DNA of 64,000 nt from the NCBI GenBank assembly GCA_000733355.1, contig JNVV01000001.1:1626240-1690239 (forward strand), read 5' to 3'. Shown in pieces: positions 6,523 through 53,211 of the stretch. The notes below the pieces were generated by a model. The model saw nothing but the letters and a program-made list of their open reading frames with translations, was not told the DNA's origin and ran no database searches. The DNA is from Falciphora oryzae (taxonomy: Eukaryota > Ascomycota > Sordariomycetes > Magnaporthales > Magnaporthaceae). Numbering within the stretch: position 1 is the first letter of the stretch; every line of letters starts with the position of its first letter. A program made the position numbers and the translations under genes.

Positions 6523-9500
6523 GACGCCGAGTGTATTAAAATCGACAGCGACGAGGTCGTCGGTGGAGTGCAAGGCTCACAAAGCCAAAAACGGGAGACG
6601 GGAGAAAATCAAAAGTCAAATGCTAAATGAGGTCAGCGGAGTACAGAGGAAGGCCTGCTGCAACGCTAACACTGGATGCGTTCCCCTGGGCACAGTCGCG
6701 ATGTGGTCGAATGGAGGAGAGACTGGGAAAAAAAATTGTATGGGGGAAGAATACGTCAGAGACCGGGAAAAAAAAAGACAATGACGTGTGTGCAGGAGAG
6801 GAAGAGAAAAAGATAAAAGGAATTTCCAGGCCGTGGAGCCAGCGGGCGCTGGGAAATTTGGCACTGGCCACCTTCAGACTAGCGTGTGGGGCAGACACCC
6901 ACCCACCCATGACCACACCCGTCGTCGGCCACGCCCACGACCGCGCGCGGCACCCATCCGACATGGAAGGGGCGGCCTCGCTGGGTCGCTGGCCGAGACA
7001 AGGTGGGAAACGGGCAGGCAGGTACGCACAAAGCACAAAGCAGCGCGCGCGCCATGGCCAAATGCCGACTGCCTGGGAGGAGCACCTTGCCTTCTTCCCC
7101 ATTTTCGATTCCGGCCCTGGCGATGGAACAAAGAACAAGGCGAGCACGCTCCCGCGGCCTGGCATCGTGGCAGTCGATCGATCTCCCCTCCCTCCCTCCA
7201 TCAACCACACACATCCTGCTTCGAGCCACCCAACCACCACCTGCCTCCTACCGCTCCAGACACACCAGGCAGCGGCAGGTCCACTCCCTCTCCCCGACGC
7301 ACTCTCACCGTTCCTCGCCATCCCGGCCGACAACAGGACGGGGAGGCAGGCAGGAAAGCCTGCGTGTCGGTATACAGTGGTTTTCTCTCAAGACCGGACT
7401 GTGGAAAACTGACCGACCCACTCCCAGCAGAGTAGGATTGCTTCATTGGTTCAGACGTTGGATGTCGTCCCTCCCCCTTCCTCGGGGTCCTGCCATTCGG
7501 CCGTTTGGCCCGTTCTGTTCTCGCCCGTCTCCTGCGGGTACGAAGAAAAATTCTACCTTCAAAGGGGTCTTTTTTCTTATGGGGCACGCGTGGGTAATTT
7601 CTGCAACGGGGGTTGGGATAATTACGACGTCAACGTTGCTCGAATCGAGGATTGCCGGGGAACTCCTGGCAGCTTTGAGCAATCATCCCTGACCTCTGCG
7701 GGAAGAAGCACGCACGGCCCAGGGAAAGGTAAGAGGGCAGCAGCAAGCCCACGACAACACGCAAGACCCTGGGCTGCTCGCGGTGAGGAGAAAGGGAAGC
7801 ACTGCACGGATGCCCGCCCCGGCCCACGAGAGCTCACGGTTTACCAAGAATTGCCTGTGCTAGCCAACCCCTGACACCGAAGGAAAAGAAGCAACAGCCC
7901 CATAATCATATCCAGAACCCGCAGAAAGCAAGCCAAACCGCCTATCTGCTTGTCAGTGCGCCTACAATACTGGCAAGCACGCGACGACCTCCAGCATGCT
8001 TCGGCCGCCGCAGGTATTATTAATGCAAGCAGCACACCTCCTAGTCGCCGAAAAGGCTCCGTTTTTACCGCATCTAGACTCGTCCACTCAGGCCTGGAAC
8101 TCGGGATGCACAGTGCTGTAAGATGTGACGCCGTGCGAGCGACGAACGGAGAGGAGGACGAGCCACGAGAACGAGAAAGGGCAGGGGAAGGGGGAGGGAC
8201 CAATGTCGAACGAGCAAATGATTGCAGCGTGGTCGGGGGAGACTCCTCGAAAGATTGCCGTCGTGCGTCCCGGTCGAATCAGGAGAGGCGAGTGCCCATC
8301 CCATGTTGACACCCTCCCCACTCTTTCGCTTGCAATTCCGGAGTTGTTCTGGCGCCATCCCAATCCCAGTCTTTTTTTCCTTTTTTCTTTTTTTTTTTCT
8401 TCGCTCGTCTGCGCTGCTTCCCGCGCTCCCACCAAACCAAGTTTCGTCCACCCCGTCGAGGGAACCCTGCCGCCGCCCCATTCGTCTTCTCTTTGCAGAC
8501 GCGACGAGTCAAACATCCAACGTTGGCGGTGACCACGTTTGTGGTATTTTGTGGTATTTGTGGCCTCAGGCTGTTTTTTTTTCTTGCCGAGATTCGACAT
8601 TCGACACACGCACAGCTTCCGCTAGCAGGATGGAATATTGGCGCGGCTAAGCTTGGGTCGTGCGGATTGCCAAAGTCAACGTTATTTGCCCCGGCTTAGC
8701 CTATGACGTAGCCCTGTCGCAACATGGAGCGCCCTCATGCGTCACCATGAAGTCTGATCAGGCCGCTCCGACAGCAAACGTTTCCCACAAAAAGAAAAGC
8801 TAGTCAGCGTCAGCGCTTTGCAAGCGCCGTCGCGATTCATACGGCATTATCCAGCAATCGCTAGGTTTGATATCGACAAACAGATACTTTGGCTGTTTGG
8901 ATTGTAGATTGGGGGTCTCTTCAATCGGAGGCAAGGGGAAAATGATGCAATGCGTGATGATGGGAGGAAATGGAGGTGGATGGGGTGGGCACGGAACCCA
9001 CTACTGAATGCGGCGCGGCACTGTGCCGCAGAAAAAAGAAGGGAGCGGGCAGAAAAGAATGCAGGCCTGCGCCGCTAGCGACCACACTATGACGCATTGC
9101 TACATGCCAAAATGGGGTGGGGCGGCGACTGATTCGACGCCACCAAAACACTGTCCGAGTTGGCGCACCCGGCCAGGCATTCCCCCTGGCCGCACCATCG
9201 CGTAATGAGACTGATGGTTCCGGGGGCGGGCACGGTTTAGCTAGAAGGCCGGCACGCACGCGTCTTTGCTTCTTCCGCCAGGACGCCTCGGCCGCAATCG
9301 TCTTCGCTCGCCGATAGCGCGTCTGCTATCGATGGTGACCTACCATGGGCCCTCGTATCATTGGAACGGCGCATCAGTGTCGGAAATCCTGAGGTGCTTG
9401 CGAGTATAGGTATACAAACCGATATGCCCCCAAGTGCTCACATCTTGACAACATTGGCATCGTCCAGAGTACGAAAGCCTTTTTTTTTTTTTTCTTTTTT

Positions 9501-39462: not shown

Positions 39463-41459
39463 CTACCACAAAGGCTCGCCTGCCTGGGCGGCATCCCTAG
39501 CAAATGGGACTATGGCATCCACCATACTACGCACGCATTCGTCCAAAGACACGGACGGGCTCCAGCCCAGGTCCTGGCAGGTGTTTGCGATGCAGGGCAC
39601 CGGCGCGGCAAGTCCTGATATCCCTCGCCGTACAGAGCCTGCGACCCGGCCTCGACCGTCTTGACACCCGCACACCTACCGGCCAGCTCCGGCGTGCGCC
39701 TCGCCGCGTCCAGCATGCGCCCGGCGAGCTCGCGGACCGAGCAGTCGTTGGCCGGGCTGCCTATGTTGTAGATCTTGCCGCGCGTGACCCCGTCCCCGTC
39801 GGCTACGATGCGCACCAGCGCGTCGACGCCGTCGTCGATGTACGTGAACGCCCGCCGCTGATGCCCGCCGTCCGACAGCGCCAGGTCCTCGCCGCGCAGC
39901 AGGTTGCCCAGGAACTGCGTCGTCACGCGCGCCCCTCCCGGCCGGCACCGCGCGAGCGAGTCCAGGCCCGGCCCTACCCAGTTGAAGGGGCGGAAGAGCG
40001 TAAAGTCGAGCCCGCGCTGGCTGCCGTGCGCCCAGATGACCCGGTCCATCAGCTGCTTGGAGCACGCGTAGATCCAGCGCGTCCTGCAGACGGGGCCGTA
40101 CGCCAGCTCCGACGTGTCCGCGTCGAACTCGCCGTCCCGGCACAGCCCGTACACCTCGGACGTCGAGGGGAACACGAGCCGCTTCCTGTGCCGCGTCGCC
40201 CACCGGACGATGGCGAGGTTCGCCTCGAAGTCGAGCTCGAAGACGGCGAGCGGGTTCTCGACGTAGGTGCGCGGCGTCGCGATGGCCGCGAGGGGAATCA
40301 CGACGTCGCACGCCCGCACCTGCTCCTCGATCCACCGGCCGTTGCTGTTCATGTCACCCTGCCTGAACACGAAACGGCCGCCGTGGTGCTCCTGGCCGTC
40401 CACGAGATCGGCGATGCGGTGCGTACTTATGTCGAGGCCCCGCACGTGCCAGTCCGTCGTCCGCAGAATCCGCCGCAGCAGGTGATGGCCAATGAAGCCG
40501 TTGACGCCGAGGATGAGGATTCGCTTTGGCCTTGCAGCCCCCTCCTCGCCGAGGACCTCCTTCAGCGCATCCGGGGAAACTTCATGGCCGTCCTCTAGGA
40601 GTTGCAGAACTGTCACCACCCCGCCGTCACCACATACTGCGAGGATCTCTCCGTCGATGGCGTGAAGGCCTGGGGAGAGATCCGGTCCTTGACGGCCCGG
40701 CAGCCTCGCCTTCGCGACGACGAACTTGCGGCCGCGCAGCTCGGTGAAGGCTCCAGGGTACGGCGGCGCCACCGCCCGGTAGAGGTTGTAAACCTCCTGC
40801 GCCGGCCGCGACCAGTCTATGCGCCCGTCCTCGGGCTTCCTCCCGCCAAAGTAGCGGCCCCGCGAGAGGTCGTTGTCGTGCTTGGGTATGTCGCCGGCGA
40901 GCATGGCGGGCAGGACGTCCCACAGCGCCTTCTCGGCCGCCGTCACGACCTTGCCGAACACGACGAGCGCCGTGTCGTCCGGTAGGATAGGCACGGACAC
41001 CTGCGTGACGATGTAGCCGGCATCCGGCTTCGCGACCATCTCGTGGAGCGTCGCGCCAGTCTCGGCCTCCCCGTGCAGGACCGCCCAGTTGACGGGGACG
41101 CGGCCGCGGTACTTGGGCAGCAGCGAGCCGTGCATGTTGAAGGCGCCGTGTTTGGCCTGCTGCAGGATGCTCGTCGGCAGCAGGTAGCGGTAGTAGAAGC
41201 TGAAGATCCAGTCGGGCCGGAGGGATGTGATCTTCTCCAGCAGCTCTGCTGACTTGGCGTCGGACGGCACTATGTAGGGGATGCTGAGCTCCTTGCAGAG
41301 CGAGGCGACGGACCCGAACCAGATCTCCTCGGATGGATCATCCTCGTGAGTGATAACTAACGGGACTTTGACACCGCGGGCAAGCAGCACTTTCAGGCAG
41401 CGGACGCCAACGTCGTGGTAAGCGAAGACGACGGCCGAGGGGGACGAATAAGACAGCAT
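39463..41459 (-). CDS. arnA: ArnA-like bifunctional formyltransferase / UDP-glucuronate decarboxylase, frameshifted near the 3' end
   Basis: In bacteria ArnA oxidatively decarboxylates UDP-glucuronate to UDP-4-keto-arabinose and N-formylates UDP-L-Ara4N. The N-terminal formyltransferase (1-300) has FNMHGSLLPKYRG with Asn108 and His110, and Asp146 in KPDAG. The C-terminal SDR domain (310 on) has GVNGFIG, PSTSEVYGLC (Thr433, Ser434, Glu435) and RWIYACSKQLMDRVIWAHG (Tyr464, Lys468). These match E. coli ArnA T432/S433/E434/Y463/K467 with an offset of one. FTLFRPFNWVGPGLDSL is also typical. After GEGYQDLPRR the original frame gives unrelated sequence to 39510. The next frame continues the family (VPCIANTCQDLGWSPSVSLD) to a stop at 39463, so one base is missing near 39601-39605. 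Intronless, about 664 residues if continuous, versus 660 in E. coli. Confidence 0.85.
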
Positions 41460-41929
41460 CCTGACGGGCGCGTTAGGGGCCTAGAGTCTTCCGTTTCTCC
41501 TTGGTTATAAATATGAGTGTAATTAACTAATGCTGACGGACATAGGAAAGACAGAGACATCCCGGATCTTATGTGCACACATAATATATGAAGCGCCAAC
41601 CTATCCTTCGCATTCCTCTCCCCAGGAGTACGGACTGGAGGTGTGAGAATAGCAATCAGGTTGCGTGACATCACAACTCTCGACGACACCAATCTGCAGG
41701 AGGGCCAACCCAATGACGGAAGTGCCGTCTCCCCCACACCCATGGTGCATTTTGCGCTAGAAAAAGGCGTTTAGCGTTGTCTCAACCATGTGACACTCGC
41801 GCAGGAACGCTGTGCCCCAAGGCAAAAGAGGAGCATGCATAACATAAAGCGAAGGCAATAGAAAAAGGAAAGGCCCAAGCGGCAGGCCAAGCTAGATCCG
41901 AGTCACACGACCGAGGCAAAAGAACAAAA
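41460..41929. other. arnB-arnA intergenic spacer
   Basis: 470 bp between two minus-strand genes. It should hold the arnB 3' end and a separate arnA promoter, as expected in a eukaryote. No other feature seen. Confidence 0.6.
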
Positions 41930-43204
41930 CTACTGGTCAGACAGAGGAGGAGGAGGTCTCAGGAGCGCCTTGGTGGCGTCAGCCACTCGGTCGACGTCGG
42001 CGTCGGTCATGGAGTTGAAGAGCGGCAGGGTGACGATCTGGCGGCCCACGCGCTCAGCGACGGGGTACATGTCCTCCCCGAAGCCTCGCGCGCGGTAGAG
42101 TTGGAAGAGGTGGATCGCCGGGTAGTGGACCCCGACGCCGATCTGGTGCTGCTCCCGCATCTGCTGGATGAAGGTGGCGCGGCCCATCCGAGACGGCAGC
42201 ACCAGCTGGAACAGGTGCCAATTGCTGGTGCTGGTGCTGCTGCCCGGGGTCTCCCCTCCTCCAGCTCCGGCGGTGGTGGCGTCCTCGCAGTCGCAAGCCC
42301 CTGAAGCAGCACAGCAGCAGGGTTGCGGCGGCAGCTGTGCGCCATAGGTGCGCTCAAATGCCGCGGGGTCCCCAAAGGCGGTGAAGTAGCGCCGCGCGAG
42401 CCGGCGGCGCTTGGCGGCGATGGCGTCGGCGCGCCCCAGCTGCGCCAGGCCAATGGCGGCCGCCAGATCCGTCATGTTGGACTTGCCGCCCAGCACGTCG
42501 ACCTCGAAGCCGTCGGCACCCGTCCGCGTCAGGCCCTGCAGGCGCAGCTTCTCGGCCATGCGGGCCTCGGCGTCGTCGTTGAGGACCAGGCAGCCGCCCT
42601 CGCCCGTCGTGACGTTCTTGGTCGCCTGGAAGCTGAAGGAAACAAGGTCGCCAAAGGAGCCGATGCGTCGGCCCCGCCACGTCGACCCGATGGCCTGCGC
42701 GGCGTCCTCGATGACCCGAAGAGGACGACGGCAACTACCGGTTGTGCTGTGCGGCGCGCCTGCTGCTGCCAGAGCGTAGAGCCTGTCCATGTCGACGGGC
42801 AGCCCGGCGAGGTGCACAGGGATGATGGCGCAGGTCCGCTCTGTGATGGCGCGCTCGACCTGGTCTAGGTCCAGGTTCCGCGTGGCCGGGTCGATATCAA
42901 CAAAGACGGGCGTGGCGCCGACGGCGAGGATCACGTTGGCCGTCGCGACCCAGGACAGGGGGGTGGTGACAACCTCGTCCCCCGGCCCGATTCCCGCGAC
43001 GCGCAGGGCGACCTCGAGCGAGGCCGTGCCAGAGTTAAAGGTGCGGACGGGCCGCCCGCCAAAGTAGGCCGACAGCGCCGCCTCGAACTCGAGCACCCTG
43101 GGCCCGCTGGTGACCCAGCCGGAGCGCAGGACCTGGACAACGGCCGCGATGGTGGGCTCGTCGAACTCGGGCTTGGTGAAGGGGAGGAACGGCTGGGCTG
43201 CCAT
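41930..43204 (-). CDS. arnB: ArnB-like PLP aminotransferase (UDP-4-amino-4-deoxy-L-arabinose synthesis)
   Basis: ArnB transfers an amino group from glutamate to UDP-4-keto-arabinose made by ArnA, giving UDP-L-Ara4N; it belongs to the DegT/DnrJ/EryC1/StrS aminotransferases. The protein has 424 residues, starts MAAQPFLPFTKPEFDEP and shows RSGWVTSGPRVLEFE, FNSGTASLEVALR, EDAAQAIG (Asp167) and the Schiff-base lysine in SFSFQATKNVTTGEGG (Lys196). KSNMTDLAAAIGLAQL and the C-terminal barrel motif HYPAIH are also present. It is longer than the usual about 380 because of two insertions, near 149-160 and a Cys/Gly/Ser-rich one near 292-328. The frame is open upstream to 43369 but reads as leader. Intronless. 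With arnA downstream on the same strand, the B-to-A order matches the bacterial operon without C. A related sugar aminotransferase specificity cannot be excluded. Confidence 0.85.
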   Translation of the reverse strand: MAAQPFLPFTKPEFDEPTIAAVVQVLRSGWVTSGPRVLEFEAALSAYFGGRPVRTFNSGTASLEVALRVAGIGPGDEVVTTPLSWVATANVILAVGATPVFVDIDPATRNLDLDQVERAITERTCAIIPVHLAGLPVDMDRLYALAAAGAPHSTTGSCRRPLRVIEDAAQAIGSTWRGRRIGSFGDLVSFSFQATKNVTTGEGGCLVLNDDAEARMAEKLRLQGLTRTGADGFEVDVLGGKSNMTDLAAAIGLAQLGRADAIAAKRRRLARRYFTAFGDPAAFERTYGAQLPPQPCCCAASGACDCEDATTAGAGGGETPGSSTSTSNWHLFQLVLPSRMGRATFIQQMREQHQIGVGVHYPAIHLFQLYRARGFGEDMYPVAERVGRQIVTLPLFNSMTDADVDRVADATKALLRPPPPLSDQ

Positions 43205-47764: not shown

Positions 47765-50700
47765 TTAAAATGTCTCAGACTCTTGTGATGCGAGGGATCC
47801 GAAAGTGTCTGCTGGGTGAACGATCATTAGTATATATGATGCAAGCAACGAAACTCTGGGATCCCGCCCGAGAAAAGGGTAAACGTACCTCGCTTCCGCC
47901 GTCTATCTTCCTCGCTCTTGGGGGTCATAGCCCTAGGGCCGCTCGGCCGGCGCGTCGGGCCGCCGTTGCCGAGAGCGGAACTGAGGTTCCTGTTCTCCAG
48001 CTTAGGGCTGCCGTTGTAGCTGCCGTGCGTCGCCGTGCCGTAGCCGCTCTCGACGCTGTGGTACGGCAGTGGGCTTGGAGCCGTCTTCTGCAGCTTGTTC
48101 ACCCGGCTCGACTTGGGCGGCGTCATGTGACCCGTGTTAGCCTCATCAAGAGGCTCCTTGGGTGGGCGTGGGGGTCCCAGGGGCGAGGCGTCTCCGGCGC
48201 GGGCGAGCGGCGCGGGCGGCGAGCCCCAAAACTGCGGGTCCTGTGGCCGCGCATTGTCCTTCCCTTGGAGGCGGTTAAGGCTGGTTGCCGAATGAGCCCA
48301 GTCGGCCGAGTAAGGCGACTGTGGCGAGTTGAACTGCTCGGCCCCAGTCTCGATGGCAACTTGGTACTGCTGTCCAGGGCGTGGCTGAGGGTGCCTCAGA
48401 TTGAGCGAGTCACGATGGGCTTTGTACTTGGGGTCTTCAGGCATCATGTCGCGCAGGTCTTCTTGGGTGAAGCCCGTGTGGAGCTTGTCATCACCGTACG
48501 GGTCAGTGTTCGGCTGCCCCTCGTAGGCCAGGTCGGACCCTGAGCGCGACGCGTTGTTCTTGCGGAAGACCTTGCCCACGCTCGATGCCGTCGTCTCGGA
48601 CCAGCGGGAGATCTTGGGGAACCAGTTGGACGAGCTGGACGACTTGTGCTTCTTGCTCTTGTCCGTGTGAGGCGTATTCTCGTTGCTGGCCGCCTGCGCT
48701 GGCAGTGTTGGATGAGGCGGAGTGGCCACGGGGACTGAGCCACTACGCGGGATATCGCCGCGCTCCGGCGAGTTGTGCATCCCCAGGGTGTCGTACTGGT
48801 CATCTCGGTGGTAGCCCAGCGCGGCTCCCCGGTCAGCCAGCTGGTGCTGGTGGTCGTACTCGTCCTCATTCGCCTCGTGGACGGTGCTGATGCGGTGATC
48901 CGAAAACTTGCGCTCGTAGCCCGTCTTGTTGGCCGATTGGCCGCGTGACTGCGAAGGGATTGACAGGTGGCCCGACTGGCTCGCGTGGCTGGCTGTCGAC
49001 GTGCCGGCGTGTCCCTCAGGCTCGTAGCCGCGGTCATGCTCGTACTGCACTGCGGGCTGCAGGTTGTCAAAGGGCGACCGCACACCGTCGCGCGTGGGGC
49101 TGGCTCCCATGTGACCTGCCGTCTGCGCCTTGAGGGTGTCCACCTCGGTCAGCAGCTGCATGAGCATGTCCTCGATCCTCCCGAGGTCGTTGTTGCCCTT
49201 AGCACTCAGGCCCTTGAGTGCCCGCCGGAACATGTTCTGCTTCTTGGTCGGCATGTCCTCGGTGCCGGCCTGGGAGCCTCCCTGCACAGACCTGGGCGCG
49301 CTGCCGGGGAACGGTCTCGGCCCGCCGATGACGCGCTGGACTGTCTTCTCCGTGTTCTCATCCACCTCTCGGATGATGACGTCTTCCGAGTCGGCGATCA
49401 TATGCTTGATCTTCTCAAACGACTCGCGCATTTCCGCCGCGGACCGGACAAGCGTCATAAGAATCTCCGTGTCGCGCGCGCTGCGCTGGGCATCGCGGAC
49501 CATGAGGTGCTGCATCAGCGCAATGATATCCTTGGACTCGATGCGGTCGATACCCGCACCAGTCGAAGGGTCATAGAGGGGAGAGCCCATCCCCTGTGAG
49601 AGGCCGCTCATGTGCCTCGCCCCCTTGGAGGTATAGAAGGGGTCCTCGAGGTCGGCGTTGATGGGCTGGGGGAGCTCGACGCCCTTGCCCTTGCGCCTCT
49701 GCATCTCCTGGTTCTCGTTGGCGCCTTGCGAGATGTATCCCTCGTCGACCTTGTTGTTGTGGCCAAGGGGGCTGCGCGTCGCGAACCCAGAACCATAAGT
49801 AGGGTTCTGGAACACGGGGGGCGCGCTGTCCAGGAGCTCGTTACCGAGCCCCGGAAGGTTGACCTGCGGGCTGGTGCCCTCGAAGGGGTTCGTCACCAAA
49901 GTGTCCCGCTTGCGGTCATCGGACGTTCGCTGCCAGTCCTCCTGGTCCTGGCTGGGCTGCCGGCTGTGAGACGAGGCCAACGCAGCGGCAGTTGCCAGAG
50001 CTGCCCCAGCTGCTACTTTGGCTGTGGTGGCCTTCTCGAGGCCATGGCCAGACCGCTCGGCCTCGGCTCTAAAGCTGTCATCCTGGGGCGGCACGTGGCG
50101 CTCTTGAGTTGGTGTCCTCTGGCCTGCCCAGTTGTCCCCCTGGTCCTCCCCATCAAGCTGACCTTCGATAATCGATGGGTTTGATCCCTCGTAGAACCCA
50201 ATTTCTGGCAGGGGGTCATCGACATCAGGCACGCCACTAGCACCCATCCTCGGCTTTTCAAACTCGTCCAGGCGATCCACACTGTGCATGGGCGTGTTGG
50301 CTGGGCGATGTCCATCCATGGTCCGTTCCTTGAAGGACTTGTTGCGCTGGACGCCAGGGCCGTCGAGGGCATAGTCTTCCTCTGCATCCTCGGTCTGCGT
50401 CTGCATGCCCTTCTCCTTGGCAGCGTTTCGCAGCGCAGCCGAGGCGACAGCAAAGGCAGCCCCGGTGATAGCTGCCTCAGACGCTGTTGGGGACTGTCGC
50501 TCAGCGGATTGAGATGCCGCGGGAACCTTGCGCCCGAACTGGTCAAGCTCATACTCGCCAGGAAACCCGGCCGATCTTGGCTGGCCGCGGTCATGCGAGA
50601 GGCCAGATGTGTGCGAGTTGATCGAGCGAGGCGTCCCACCCCTCGCGGTGTCGCGGTTGATAGAGCGGGCATCGGGAGTGTTACGGCCATAGGAGCCTTC

Positions 50701-53211
50701 TTCCGGGAGTGTTGCCATAGACCCACGGTCACCGTTGTATTGCTGGCCACGCCCGGAGTTGTTTGTGAGCACGGAGCCATCGAGCATTGATCCGTCTATG
50801 AGAGACGCCACGGCCGACTCGACCCCGAGCGCCGAGGGGATATGAACAAAATTCGGGTTCGCGACAATGCCCCGGACAGCCTGGCCAGACGAAACATCGC
50901 CGCCAAGCTCGCTGTCCTCGGTGAGTGTCGGGTTCCTGTAGCCGACGGCAGAGCTTCGGACGCTTCGATCATCGTGATCGAAGTCGCGGCTCCTGGTGTT
51001 GCTGAGCTCCGAGCCGGGCGAAAATGGGACACTGTCATGATGAGGCGACTTCCCAGGGGACGACAGCGAGCCGCTTGTTGTGTGAGTAACCCGTGAGTCT
51101 CGGGCTTGGACCTCACTTCCGCCCTCTGTGTATCCTGAAACGCTGGGGATAGGGCTGAGGCCGCGGCGCTCCACCCCGTAGGGCTCGTACTTGAGCGGAG
51201 CCGGAACATGCTGTGTGTCGTAGTATTCGAAGCCTTGCTGGTCGTCATACGGGTAATCATCCTCCGCTTCATCGTAGTCGTCGTACTCTTGTTGGCGGTT
51301 GATTGGGTACTTGCGCCCATATTCGTCTGTCTCGAACTCGGTTGCACCCACGGCGCTGCCCGTCCGTGGCAAGGCCCTGAGGTCGCCGTGTGAAACATTC
51401 ATATGTTGAGTGCCCAGCCCAGCAAGAGTTGCTGCAGGCTTCTGTGTTGGCGTAGTGTTGGACTCTTCGTCGGCTCGGTCCGCGACCCCGCCCTTGCCGC
51501 CAGGGACTCCGCGGACCGGTGTTAGCTCTTCGGTTGCCGAGTGAGGCCGCTCAATGTCTGTGTCCGCAGACAGTATCGACTGTCTCGTGAGTTCTGACGG
51601 GTTGATCTCGCTGCTCAGCGGCATCGGGGCCGTCTGCTGGAACTCCGAGTCGTCGTAATCCTCGGTGAAACCATTCGCCGCGCGGCTCTTGGCCTCGGCG
51701 CGGCGGCGCTTACGCTGCTCTCGAGCAGGCGCCGCAGAGGCGTTATTGAGCGCTGCTATTCCAAGTGCACCGGCGACAGCACCCGCCGCGGCAGCCCTTA
51801 TGCTGTAATCGCGACGACCGGGGGTAGCGTCTATATCTTGGTGCATCGATTCATGGGCCGACTCCTGTGACTCGCTGGGGACGGGACTCTCAACGACAAC
51901 GTTGCGCGCCTCCCTATTCCGCATCTCTTTGGCCTTCTTGCTCCCAATGCTGTCCCTGGGCCCGAGGCCATGGCGTTCACTGCCGCCGGACCTTCGCCTG
52001 TCGGCGATGCTGGTGACATCCTCTCTGGACACCGAGGTGCCACTGGTGGATGCGGTCGAGTTGCGGCGGCCGTGTGTTGATCTCTGACTCTTCTCTCGCT
52101 TGAGCTCCTCGAGCTCGGGCAAGATCAGCCGCCGAATGGCGTCCTCCACCGCGTCGAGAAGCTTGGGATTGTTGATGGAGGACTTGGAAGCCCCCGAGCG
52201 CACTGATTGCTGGTCCTGCGACCGATGGCTAGGCGCCAGGGCGGACGAGACCACGCTCGAGTCCGCGACCGAGTGGTTTGATTCATGTTGGCCGCGGCTT
52301 GATTTTCGTCGCGTAGACTTATCCTCATCTCTGTCTCGCCTCTCGCTCACGCTACTGTTCCTGCTCTTATTCTTACCCTTGCGATCAGATCGCTCCTTGT
52401 CCCGCGTTTTCGGGAGAACCGGGCGCTCTTTGGATTCGCTTCGGCCGTTACTGCGCGCCTTGTCAACGACTGCGGCAGCAGCCAACCCGGCGGCAGCGCC
52501 GGCGAGGGCATGGCCAGCTCGGGATGGGCTCTTGTCGCGAGTCCTTACGGGAGAACCCGATGGCCCTGAGCCGTCGAGGAAGCTATCCGTCGGGATGGCT
52601 GAGATCTCTGAGGCGGTGTTAGGCTGGTATGATACCTTGCTGTTGTCGCTGGTGGGAATCAGCGGGCTAGCAGGACGGCGGCGGCGACGGTGGTCGATCT
52701 CGACCTCGACGGGCTGGCGAGAGACATTAGACTCCTCGGTGGCCGAGGCGTAAGAGTCCATGCTGTAGGCGTCCTCGCCCTCACCACTGAGGATCGAGAT
52801 GGCGTCGCCTTCAATCAGTCGGGAAGGCAGCGTGGCGTCGTTATGATGGCGTGTTTGGGAGGTCTTGCGGCTCGACTTGGTCTCGGTGACCTGAATGTGG
52901 CCGTCCCTGCGGTTCTTGGAAGGGGTCAGGCGCACGCGGACGCTGGGCCTTCGCTCACCGCCACTGCCCGAGGCGGTGCTTCCCTTTGGGCCCTCGAAGT
53001 ACTCGATCAGCAGCGAGGTCTGGGAGCGATTGGGCTTGTGGCGTGTCCTGATAGTGACGGGGGTGCCGTCTTCTGGTAGTGAATAGTGGGATTTGGCCTC
53101 GGGGGGCGGCGAGAAGTCGGTCTCTGTGACTTCGCTCGGAGCGGTGGTCGTCTCGGTTTCGGTAGGAGCAGGGAGGGGAGGAACGTTTTTCTTGGAATCA
53201 ACGACACCCAT
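47765..53211 (-). CDS. Very large disordered protein with Ala/Gly-zipper segments
   Basis: Exon 47889-53211 plus a 47-nt last exon (47765-47811) gives 1,789 residues starting MGVVDSKKNVPPLPAP and ending GSLASQESETF. The donor is AG|GTACGT and the acceptor is a tandem CAGCAG. Most of the chain is Ser/Arg/Asp-rich and disordered. Four Ala/Gly-rich hydrophobic segments recur: GHALAGAAAGLAAAAVVDKA, AAAAGAVAGALGIAALNNAS, ITGAAFAVASAALRNAAKE and AKVAAGAALATAAALASSH. Two likely helical regions are PKLLDAVEDAIRRLILPELE and, toward the C-terminus, ESKDIIALMQHLMVRDAQRS followed by IEDMLMQLLTEVDTLKAQT. The pattern suggests a membrane-associated scaffold of cell cortex or organelle, which is inference; I cannot name the family. 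Confidence 0.75.

What the first reader, a model, noticed from the sequence alone, without database searches (positions are those of the whole stretch)
39463..43204. Bacterial-type arnB-arnA pair in a fungal chromosome
Two adjacent same-strand genes encode near-complete ArnB and ArnA, the bacterial enzymes for UDP-L-Ara4N and its formyl derivative. ArnA keeps both domains in the bacterial order, with active-site residues colinear with E. coli (offset of one in the decarboxylase domain). ArnB keeps its PLP lysine. The flanking genes are fungal. The simplest explanation is transfer of an operon fragment from a bacterium. The fungus would then be able to make an aminopentose nucleotide with no described fungal use: a new surface glycan, a glycosylated metabolite, or protection against cationic peptides are possible (inference). 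ArnC, ArnD and ArnT are absent from the window.
Basis: partly seen in the sequence, partly recalled or inferred. Interest (0 to 1): 0.93.

Follow-up and report, generated by a model that had tools for sequence, protein, structure and literature searches.

The report
Bacterial aminoarabinose genes in a fungus
A fungus related to Gaeumannomyces carries two neighbouring genes of betaproteobacterial origin that should make the activated sugar aminoarabinose, otherwise known from bacterial outer membranes; one of them looks like two bacterial genes fused separately from the well-known E. coli fusion, and what the fungus does with the sugar is unknown.

Summary
Both genes are real, adjacent, on the minus strand of a 4.49-Mb contig among fungal genes, with neighbouring orthologues in Gaeumannomyces; contamination and vertical eukaryotic origin do not fit. 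Each domain is closest to betaproteobacteria. There the formyltransferase (FT) and decarboxylase (DC) are separate genes: 48 of the 80 best bacterial loci, including the 47 top-listed. The fungal 'ArnA' therefore looks like an independent FT-DC fusion; the concatenated data reject grouping it with gamma-type fused ArnA (p 5e-5), though smaller single-domain sets did not. Active sites and the ArnB lysine are kept; the genome has a UDP-glucose dehydrogenase; ArnD and ArnT were not found, ArnC only as a weak GT2 match. Most likely product: UDP-Ara4N/UDP-Ara4FN for an unknown acceptor. Cautions: the window's ArnA loses its frame in the last ~45 codons, and a 2012 paper listed what is probably the Fusarium DC half as a bacterial transfer, without recognising the pathway. 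New variant of a known kind; function unproven.

The parts
41933..43204 (-). ArnB-like PLP aminotransferase, 424 aa in one open frame; carries a ~35-residue low-complexity insert shared with Gaeumannomyces
42617..42619 (-). codon of the PLP-binding lysine K196
   Evidence: invariant in the 6-sequence alignment; role recalled from ArnB structures
40560..41435 (-). formyltransferase (FT) domain, residues 9-300 of the ArnA-like protein; N108, H110, D146 kept
   Evidence: (PRK06988 459.9 bits, above cut-off 316)
39600..40526 (-). UDP-glucuronate oxidase/decarboxylase (DC) domain, residues 312-620; T433 S434 E435 Y464 K468 N493 R511 R620 kept
   Evidence: (PRK11908 462.6 bits, above cut-off 294)
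39513..39599 (-). residues 621-649 of the open frame, out of frame with the relatives aligned
39463..39600 (-). homologous C-terminal tail in another frame, ending in a stop
41460..41929 (.). intergenic stretch of 470 bases between ArnB stop and ArnA start; ArnC, which lies between ArnB and FT in L002, is absent here

Best explanation
Genes of a betaproteobacterial (Oxalobacteraceae-like) aminoarabinose operon entered an ancestor of some ascomycete fungi. FT and DC, separate in the nearest bacteria, became one protein independently of the enterobacterial ArnA fusion; ArnB stayed as a neighbour. In the fungus the DC domain would oxidise and decarboxylate UDP-glucuronate (made by the fungus's own UDP-glucose dehydrogenase) to UDP-4-keto-pentose, ArnB would transfer an amino group to give UDP-Ara4N, and FT would formylate it to UDP-Ara4FN. 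With no ArnC, ArnD or ArnT found, the sugar would be used by an unidentified fungal glycosyltransferase. Shown: bacterial origin, adjacency, kept active sites, a UDP-glucose dehydrogenase gene. Strongly indicated: independent fusion. Inferred: activity, product, expression, acceptor.
For: In the 14 Oxalobacteraceae-type loci (L002-L014, L045) FT is 59-68%, DC 58-60% and ArnB 59-63% identical to the window, against 43-49%, 49-52% and 34-40% in the 32 fused-ArnA loci. FT-only search: the 120 listed hits are 65-69% identical; those whose name gives an organism are Burkholderiales, Noviherbaspirillum among the best (candidates were limited to 165-525 aa, so fused proteins could not appear there). 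Concatenated FT+DC tree: fungi one clade (10 rows, 100*), with the Oxalobacteraceae group 21 rows 98*; fungi plus gamma-type fused ArnA rejected, p 5e-5; fungi plus the two fused metagenome proteins P0006/P0007 rejected on FT, p 0.0014. FT sites kept in 15 of 16 aligned rows and DC sites in all rows that reach them (14 fungal-clade rows plus P0006/P0007), so both activities look selected. Orthologues bear consecutive locus tags in G. hyphopodioides. UDP-glucose dehydrogenase on contig C3, 435 bits to 3tdk/2q3e (human, recalled) against 205 to 2y0c (Burkholderia, recalled). Codon use matches six pooled host frames (r 0.94 and 0.96) rather than the Noviherbaspirillum genes (0.72, 0.70).
Against: The window's ArnA is out of frame for its last ~45 codons, so this copy may not work as it stands. 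No acceptor enzyme found. Among the 120 listed hits ArnB was seen only in Gaeumannomyces and one metagenome contig, so it is not shown in Fusarium, Madurella or the others that have the fused ArnA. Thozetella's FT has lost H104 and D140. With fewer rows and one domain, the split fungi+gamma-fused against the rest was not rejected (FT p 0.48, DC p 0.60), and DC alone did not separate fungi from P0006/P0007 (p 0.61). ArnB places the fungi beside Oxalobacteraceae plus Gallionellaceae, not inside Oxalobacteraceae. No expression or metabolite data.
Confidence: 0.62

Rival explanations
1. The protein mainly serves as a UDP-xylose synthase: the DC half makes UDP-xylose, which some fungi use (recalled), and ArnB and FT are side passengers.
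For: The DC half belongs to PRK11908, named 'bifunctional UDP-4-keto-pentose/UDP-xylose synthase' (462.6 bits, cut-off 294). FT is degenerate in Thozetella while DC is intact.
Against: FT sites are kept in 15 of 16 aligned rows and ArnB is 82-89% identical to the Gaeumannomyces and metagenome copies with its lysine kept: both would be expected to decay if unused.
Confidence: 0.2
2. The window copy is a decaying relic: the pathway is being lost in this species.
For: Frame lost after residue 620.
Against: The tail beyond the break is still 34 of 45 identical to the orthologue, close to the 503 of 620 before it, so the break is very recent or an assembly error; the other 620 codons and ArnB are open.
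Confidence: 0.15
3. The donor bacterium already had a fused FT-DC gene; the fungus did not fuse it.
For: Two metagenome proteins, P0006 and P0007, are fused Oxalobacteraceae-type ArnA, so such bacteria seem to exist.
Against: They group with Massilia, Janthinobacterium, Rugamonas and Duganella, not with the fungi (trees; FT test p 0.0014, but DC test p 0.61). No fused sister of the fungal clade was seen in the 80 best of 590 bacterial loci.
Confidence: 0.25
4. Bacterial contamination or a vertically inherited eukaryotic paralogue.
For: None found.
Against: 4.49-Mb contig with fungal neighbours, fungal codon use, Gaeumannomyces orthologues with consecutive locus tags; UDP-glucuronate decarboxylase 1 and UDP-apiose/xylose synthase score 62 and 196 bits against 425 for 3slg.
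Confidence: 0.01

Closest known systems
Betaproteobacterial aminoarabinose operon (Noviherbaspirillum autotrophicum L002: ArnT, ArnB, ArnC, FT PRK06988, DC PRK11908, ArnD)
   Same: Nearest kind of relatives for all three domains; ArnB precedes FT and DC in the same order
   Different: FT and DC are separate genes there; ArnC, ArnD and ArnT were not found in the fungus, and fungi have no lipid A (recalled)
Enterobacterial ArnA (PRK08125, structure 1z7e)
   Same: Two domains in the same order, same catalytic residues
   Different: Fused-type loci are only 43-49% (FT) and 49-52% (DC) identical (32 loci); window below the PRK08125 cut-off (672.5 of 777 bits); probably a separate fusion
Fungal ArnA-like proteins in Gaeumannomyces, Fusarium graminearum, Aphanocladium, Cladobotryum, Madurella, Thozetella
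   Same: Same fused architecture; one clade in the trees
   Different: Seen here only as database entries; ArnB partner seen only in Gaeumannomyces
FPSE_11221 of Fusarium pseudograminearum (PMC3460631)
   Same: Candidate bacterial transfer, best match Oxalobacteraceae 58%, also in F. graminearum and G. graminis var. tritici; very probably the DC half (inference, sequence not compared)
   Different: Reported as an epimerase/dehydratase without a pathway; ArnA does not occur in the text, and FT and ArnB are not mentioned in the passages read

Membership tests
ArnA, fused bifunctional type (PRK08125) | Score above curated cut-off 777 | tested here: not met
   672.5 bits for the window, 700.5 for Fusarium P0005, 752.2 for P0006; Citrobacter control 1235.3
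ArnA, fused bifunctional type (PRK08125) | FT and DC in one chain with both active sites | tested here: met
   C-terminal ~45 residues out of frame in the window copy
ArnA, fused bifunctional type (PRK08125) | Common descent with gammaproteobacterial fused ArnA as a fused protein | tested here: not met
   AU p 5e-5 on concatenated FT+DC; smaller FT-only and DC-only sets did not reject it (p 0.48, 0.60)
Betaproteobacterial FT (PRK06988) | Score above cut-off 316 | tested here: met
   459.9 bits; the Citrobacter control also passes at 340.4
Betaproteobacterial DC, UDP-4-keto-pentose/UDP-xylose synthase (PRK11908) | Score above cut-off 294 | tested here: met
   462.6 bits; the Citrobacter control also passes at 513, so this cut-off alone does not tell the two types apart
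ArnB (PRK11658) | Score above cut-off 631 | tested here: not met
   275.8 bits; the Noviherbaspirillum operon ArnB also fails at 312.7, so the model does not cover that type
ArnB, betaproteobacterial type | Groups with ArnB of betaproteobacterial arn operons, PLP lysine kept | tested here: met
   35 rows 95*
Aminoarabinose lipid A modification pathway | ArnC, ArnD and ArnT present | tested here: not met
   ArnD and ArnT no match (E. coli control rings); ArnC only a 36-bit match, cut-off 529, to an N-terminally anchored GT2, ALG5-like by my reading
Aminoarabinose lipid A modification pathway | UDP-Ara4N/UDP-Ara4FN produced | not testable with these tools
   needs LC-MS or enzyme assay

The most novel reading that the evidence does not exclude
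A lineage of ascomycete fungi makes UDP-4-amino-4-deoxy-L-arabinose and its formyl form, which no paper in my search listings describes in a eukaryote, with a bifunctional enzyme that evolved the ArnA-type fusion anew from separate betaproteobacterial genes, and decorates a fungal glycan or metabolite with a cationic or formylated aminopentose.
Probability: 0.45. Interest if true: 0.8.

Novelty: new variant of a known kind. Interest (0 to 1): 0.62.

Why it matters
If active, it would give fungi a nucleotide sugar known from Gram-negative bacteria (recalled) and raise the question of a fungal aminopentose on wall glycans or metabolites, which could change surface charge toward host or competitor peptides. 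It is also a natural repeat of a gene fusion: the FT/DC architecture changed at least three times on the concatenated tree and five times on the FT tree (the counts do not tell fusion from splitting), which hints at an advantage of coupling the two ends of the pathway around ArnB. The genes are testable in Gaeumannomyces hyphopodioides, whose database proteins are full length.

Tried and rejected
Vertical eukaryotic origin and contamination: rejected. Enterobacterial ArnA as source: rejected on concatenated data; the smaller single-domain tests did not reject that split (p 0.48, 0.60). Shared fusion with P0006/P0007: rejected on FT, not on DC. The AU test also forced P0017-P0019 to the fused side, so its very small p (1e-68) overstates the case; one search is the fairer one. 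ArnC/ArnD/ArnT in the genome: ArnD and ArnT no match, ArnC one weak match, with the limit that the search is six-frame and exon by exon and that the runs with the Noviherbaspirillum ArnD and ArnT proteins had no positive control; in the runs with the family models the E. coli control rang. Whether other fungi with ArnA also have ArnB: not settled, because only the best 120 hits are listed and bacterial ArnB would outrank diverged fungal ones. The protein searches scored only the 7998-7999 candidates sharing most words and limit candidate length, so could not show separate FT or DC proteins and could not show fused ones.

Literature: ten searches; in the listings I saw no paper on ArnA, ArnB or aminoarabinose in fungi, but three were listed only in part (20 of 626, 20 of 16,126, 20 of 93). 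Passages seen in PMC11905480, PMC5897359, PMC5025739 and PMC3460631 (of the last also the whole section 7). PMC5897359 reports five bacterial transfers specific to Magnaporthales (fumarylacetoacetate hydrolase, two N-acetyltransferases, an antibiotic biosynthesis monooxygenase, a hypothetical protein) and points to 321 candidates in a supplementary table that could not be read here, so ArnA or ArnB may be listed there. All other papers: search listing only.
Full report
Observation. On the minus strand, ArnB (41933-43204, 424 aa) is followed after 470 bases by an ArnA-like frame (39513-41459, 649 aa). Pfam finds the DegT/DnrJ aminotransferase in the first and formyltransferase N, formyltransferase C and NAD-dependent epimerase/dehydratase in the second. 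Against solved structures the ArnA-like protein aligns to ArnA 1z7e over residues 9-627 (580 bits), and ArnB aligns best to 4lc3 (481 bits), far above ArnB 1mdo (219 bits) (1z7e is E. coli, 4lc3 and 3slg Burkholderia, 1mdo Salmonella, recalled). The catalytic residues checked are present (their roles are recalled).

A flaw in the ArnA frame. After residue 620 the frame differs from the relatives aligned. The homologous tail is found in another frame on the same strand (39463-39600) and is 34 of 45 identical to G. hyphopodioides, against 503 of 620 before the break. The break is thus very recent or an assembly error; full-length copies exist in Gaeumannomyces.

Genome and neighbours. The window lies in contig C1 (4,491,949 bases) of a 50.18-Mb assembly of 123 contigs, which holds one match each to ArnA and ArnB. 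Of 18 other open frames scanned with Pfam, seven match above a cut-off, all fungal in kind: a Mis13 kinetochore protein, an Aft1-domain factor, two DUF3433 frames, a TRP channel, a SUR7 protein and an IFRD protein; ten have no match and one is below its cut-off. The nearest proteins are from Gaeumannomyces: ArnA 79 and 77%, ArnB 89 and 82% identical, with consecutive locus tags RB595_002991 (ArnB) and RB595_002992 (ArnA) in G. hyphopodioides. The species is probably a member of the Magnaporthaceae (inference). Codon use agrees with six pooled host frames (r 0.94 ArnA, 0.96 ArnB) rather than with Noviherbaspirillum (0.72, 0.70); two of the six host frames fit their own pool less well (0.76, 0.55).

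Distribution. Among the 120 best hits, fused ArnA-like proteins are named in Gaeumannomyces hyphopodioides and tritici, Fusarium graminearum, Aphanocladium album, Cladobotryum mycophilum, Madurella mycetomatis and fahalii, and Thozetella, a scattered set of Sordariomycetes (class recalled). ArnB was seen only in Gaeumannomyces and one 1.7-kb metagenome contig; bacterial ArnB follow at 66% and below. Absence of ArnB elsewhere is not shown.

Where it came from. A scan of bacterial genomes kept the best 80 of 590 loci. Of these, 48 (L002-L048, L070) have FT and DC as separate adjacent genes and 32 have them fused. The separate type is closer: FT 49-68%, DC 52-61%, ArnB 40-63% where present, against FT 43-49%, DC 49-52%, ArnB 34-40% for the fused type; 73 of 80 loci hold an ArnB match. 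In Noviherbaspirillum autotrophicum the order is ArnT, ArnB, ArnC, FT, DC, ArnD (ArnT, ArnB, ArnC and ArnD score best to those NCBIfam models but below their cut-offs). A search with the FT domain alone listed 120 proteins of 297-332 aa at 65-69% identity; those whose name gives an organism are Burkholderiales (candidates limited to 165-525 aa).

Trees. FT tree: the fungal clade (14 rows, support 91) sits in a 27-row group (95*) with Oxalobacteraceae and relatives. DC tree: fungi 14 rows 100*, within a 41-row betaproteobacterial group (95*), with long fungal branches. ArnB tree: the four fungal rows (100*) are sister to 31 Gallionellaceae, Oxalobacteraceae and other rows (96*), together 35 rows 95*, so the exact donor family is not fixed. 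Concatenated FT+DC with 10 fungal rows: fungi 100*, fungi plus Oxalobacteraceae group 21 rows 98*. A topology test on it rejects fungi plus gamma-type fused ArnA as one clade (p 5e-5). With smaller single-domain sets that split was not rejected (FT p 0.48, DC p 0.60), while FT rejected fungi plus P0006/P0007 (p 0.0014) and DC did not (p 0.61). Architecture changes at least 3 times on the concatenated tree and 5 times on the FT tree; these counts give no direction.

Independent fusion. Because the fungal proteins sit among separate-gene bacteria and share one architecture, the simplest reading is a fusion after or at transfer, independent of enterobacterial ArnA. A fused donor cannot be excluded: two metagenome proteins (P0006, P0007) show that Oxalobacteraceae-type fusions occur, but they group with Massilia and relatives.

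Function. The DC and FT halves pass the NCBIfam cut-offs of the single enzymes PRK11908 and PRK06988, not that of fused ArnA; the Citrobacter control passes all three, so the first two are not exclusive. FT residues N, H and D are kept in 15 of 16 aligned rows (Thozetella lacks H and D) and DC residues in all that reach them (14 fungal-clade rows plus P0006 and P0007), which argues that both steps matter and hence that the amino substrate between them is made. The genome holds a UDP-glucose 6-dehydrogenase, nearer to the animal than to the bacterial enzymes in the PDB (435 against 205 bits; organisms recalled), to supply UDP-glucuronate. ArnD and ArnT gave no match, and ArnC only a weak one to an anchored GT2 that I read as ALG5-like. 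The likely end product is UDP-Ara4N or UDP-Ara4FN for an unknown fungal acceptor; this is inference.

Prior work. PMC3460631 (section 7 and passages seen) lists FPSE_11221 of Fusarium pseudograminearum, an NAD(P)-dependent epimerase/dehydratase with matches in F. graminearum and G. graminis var. tritici and best bacterial match Oxalobacteraceae (58%), as a candidate transfer. It is very probably the DC half (inference from species pattern, identity and donor; sequence not compared). No other paper in the library names FPSE_11221. PMC5897359 (passages) reports five bacterial transfers specific to Magnaporthales, none named as ArnA or ArnB; its supplement was not readable. Ten searches showed no paper on ArnA, ArnB or aminoarabinose in fungi in their listings, three of them listed in part.

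Verdict. A real, domesticated bacterial gene pair with an ArnA-type enzyme that was probably fused independently; the transfer of one half was probably flagged before. The pathway reading is well supported by sequence and unproven by chemistry.

Noticed in passing
P0006 and P0007 (unnamed metagenome contigs of 24.5 and 8.5 kb): Oxalobacteraceae-type FT and DC fused in one protein, with what looks like the old DC start methionine inside the linker: a further, apparently bacterial, fusion.
   Followed up: partly
P0014 (Thozetella sp.): FT half has lost the catalytic H and D while the DC half is intact, suggesting loss of formylation in that fungus.
   Followed up: partly
window 41933-43204: ArnB carries a low-complexity insert of about 35 residues rich in Cys, Gly, Ser and Thr before the C-terminal part, shared with Gaeumannomyces and absent in the three bacterial ArnB aligned; a further ~11-residue insert near residue 150 is in the window copy.
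   Followed up: partly
window 47827-53211: A 1794-aa minus-strand open frame without any Pfam match; may be a real large gene or a GC-rich chance frame.
   Followed up: no
G000:C64:232937-233299 (L083): A second UDP-glucose/GDP-mannose dehydrogenase N-domain match (50 bits) in the genome, not examined.
   Followed up: no
Madurella mycetomatis and M. fahalii ArnA (P0013, P0015): DC half has several long insertions and a very long branch, as if under relaxed or changed constraint.
   Followed up: no
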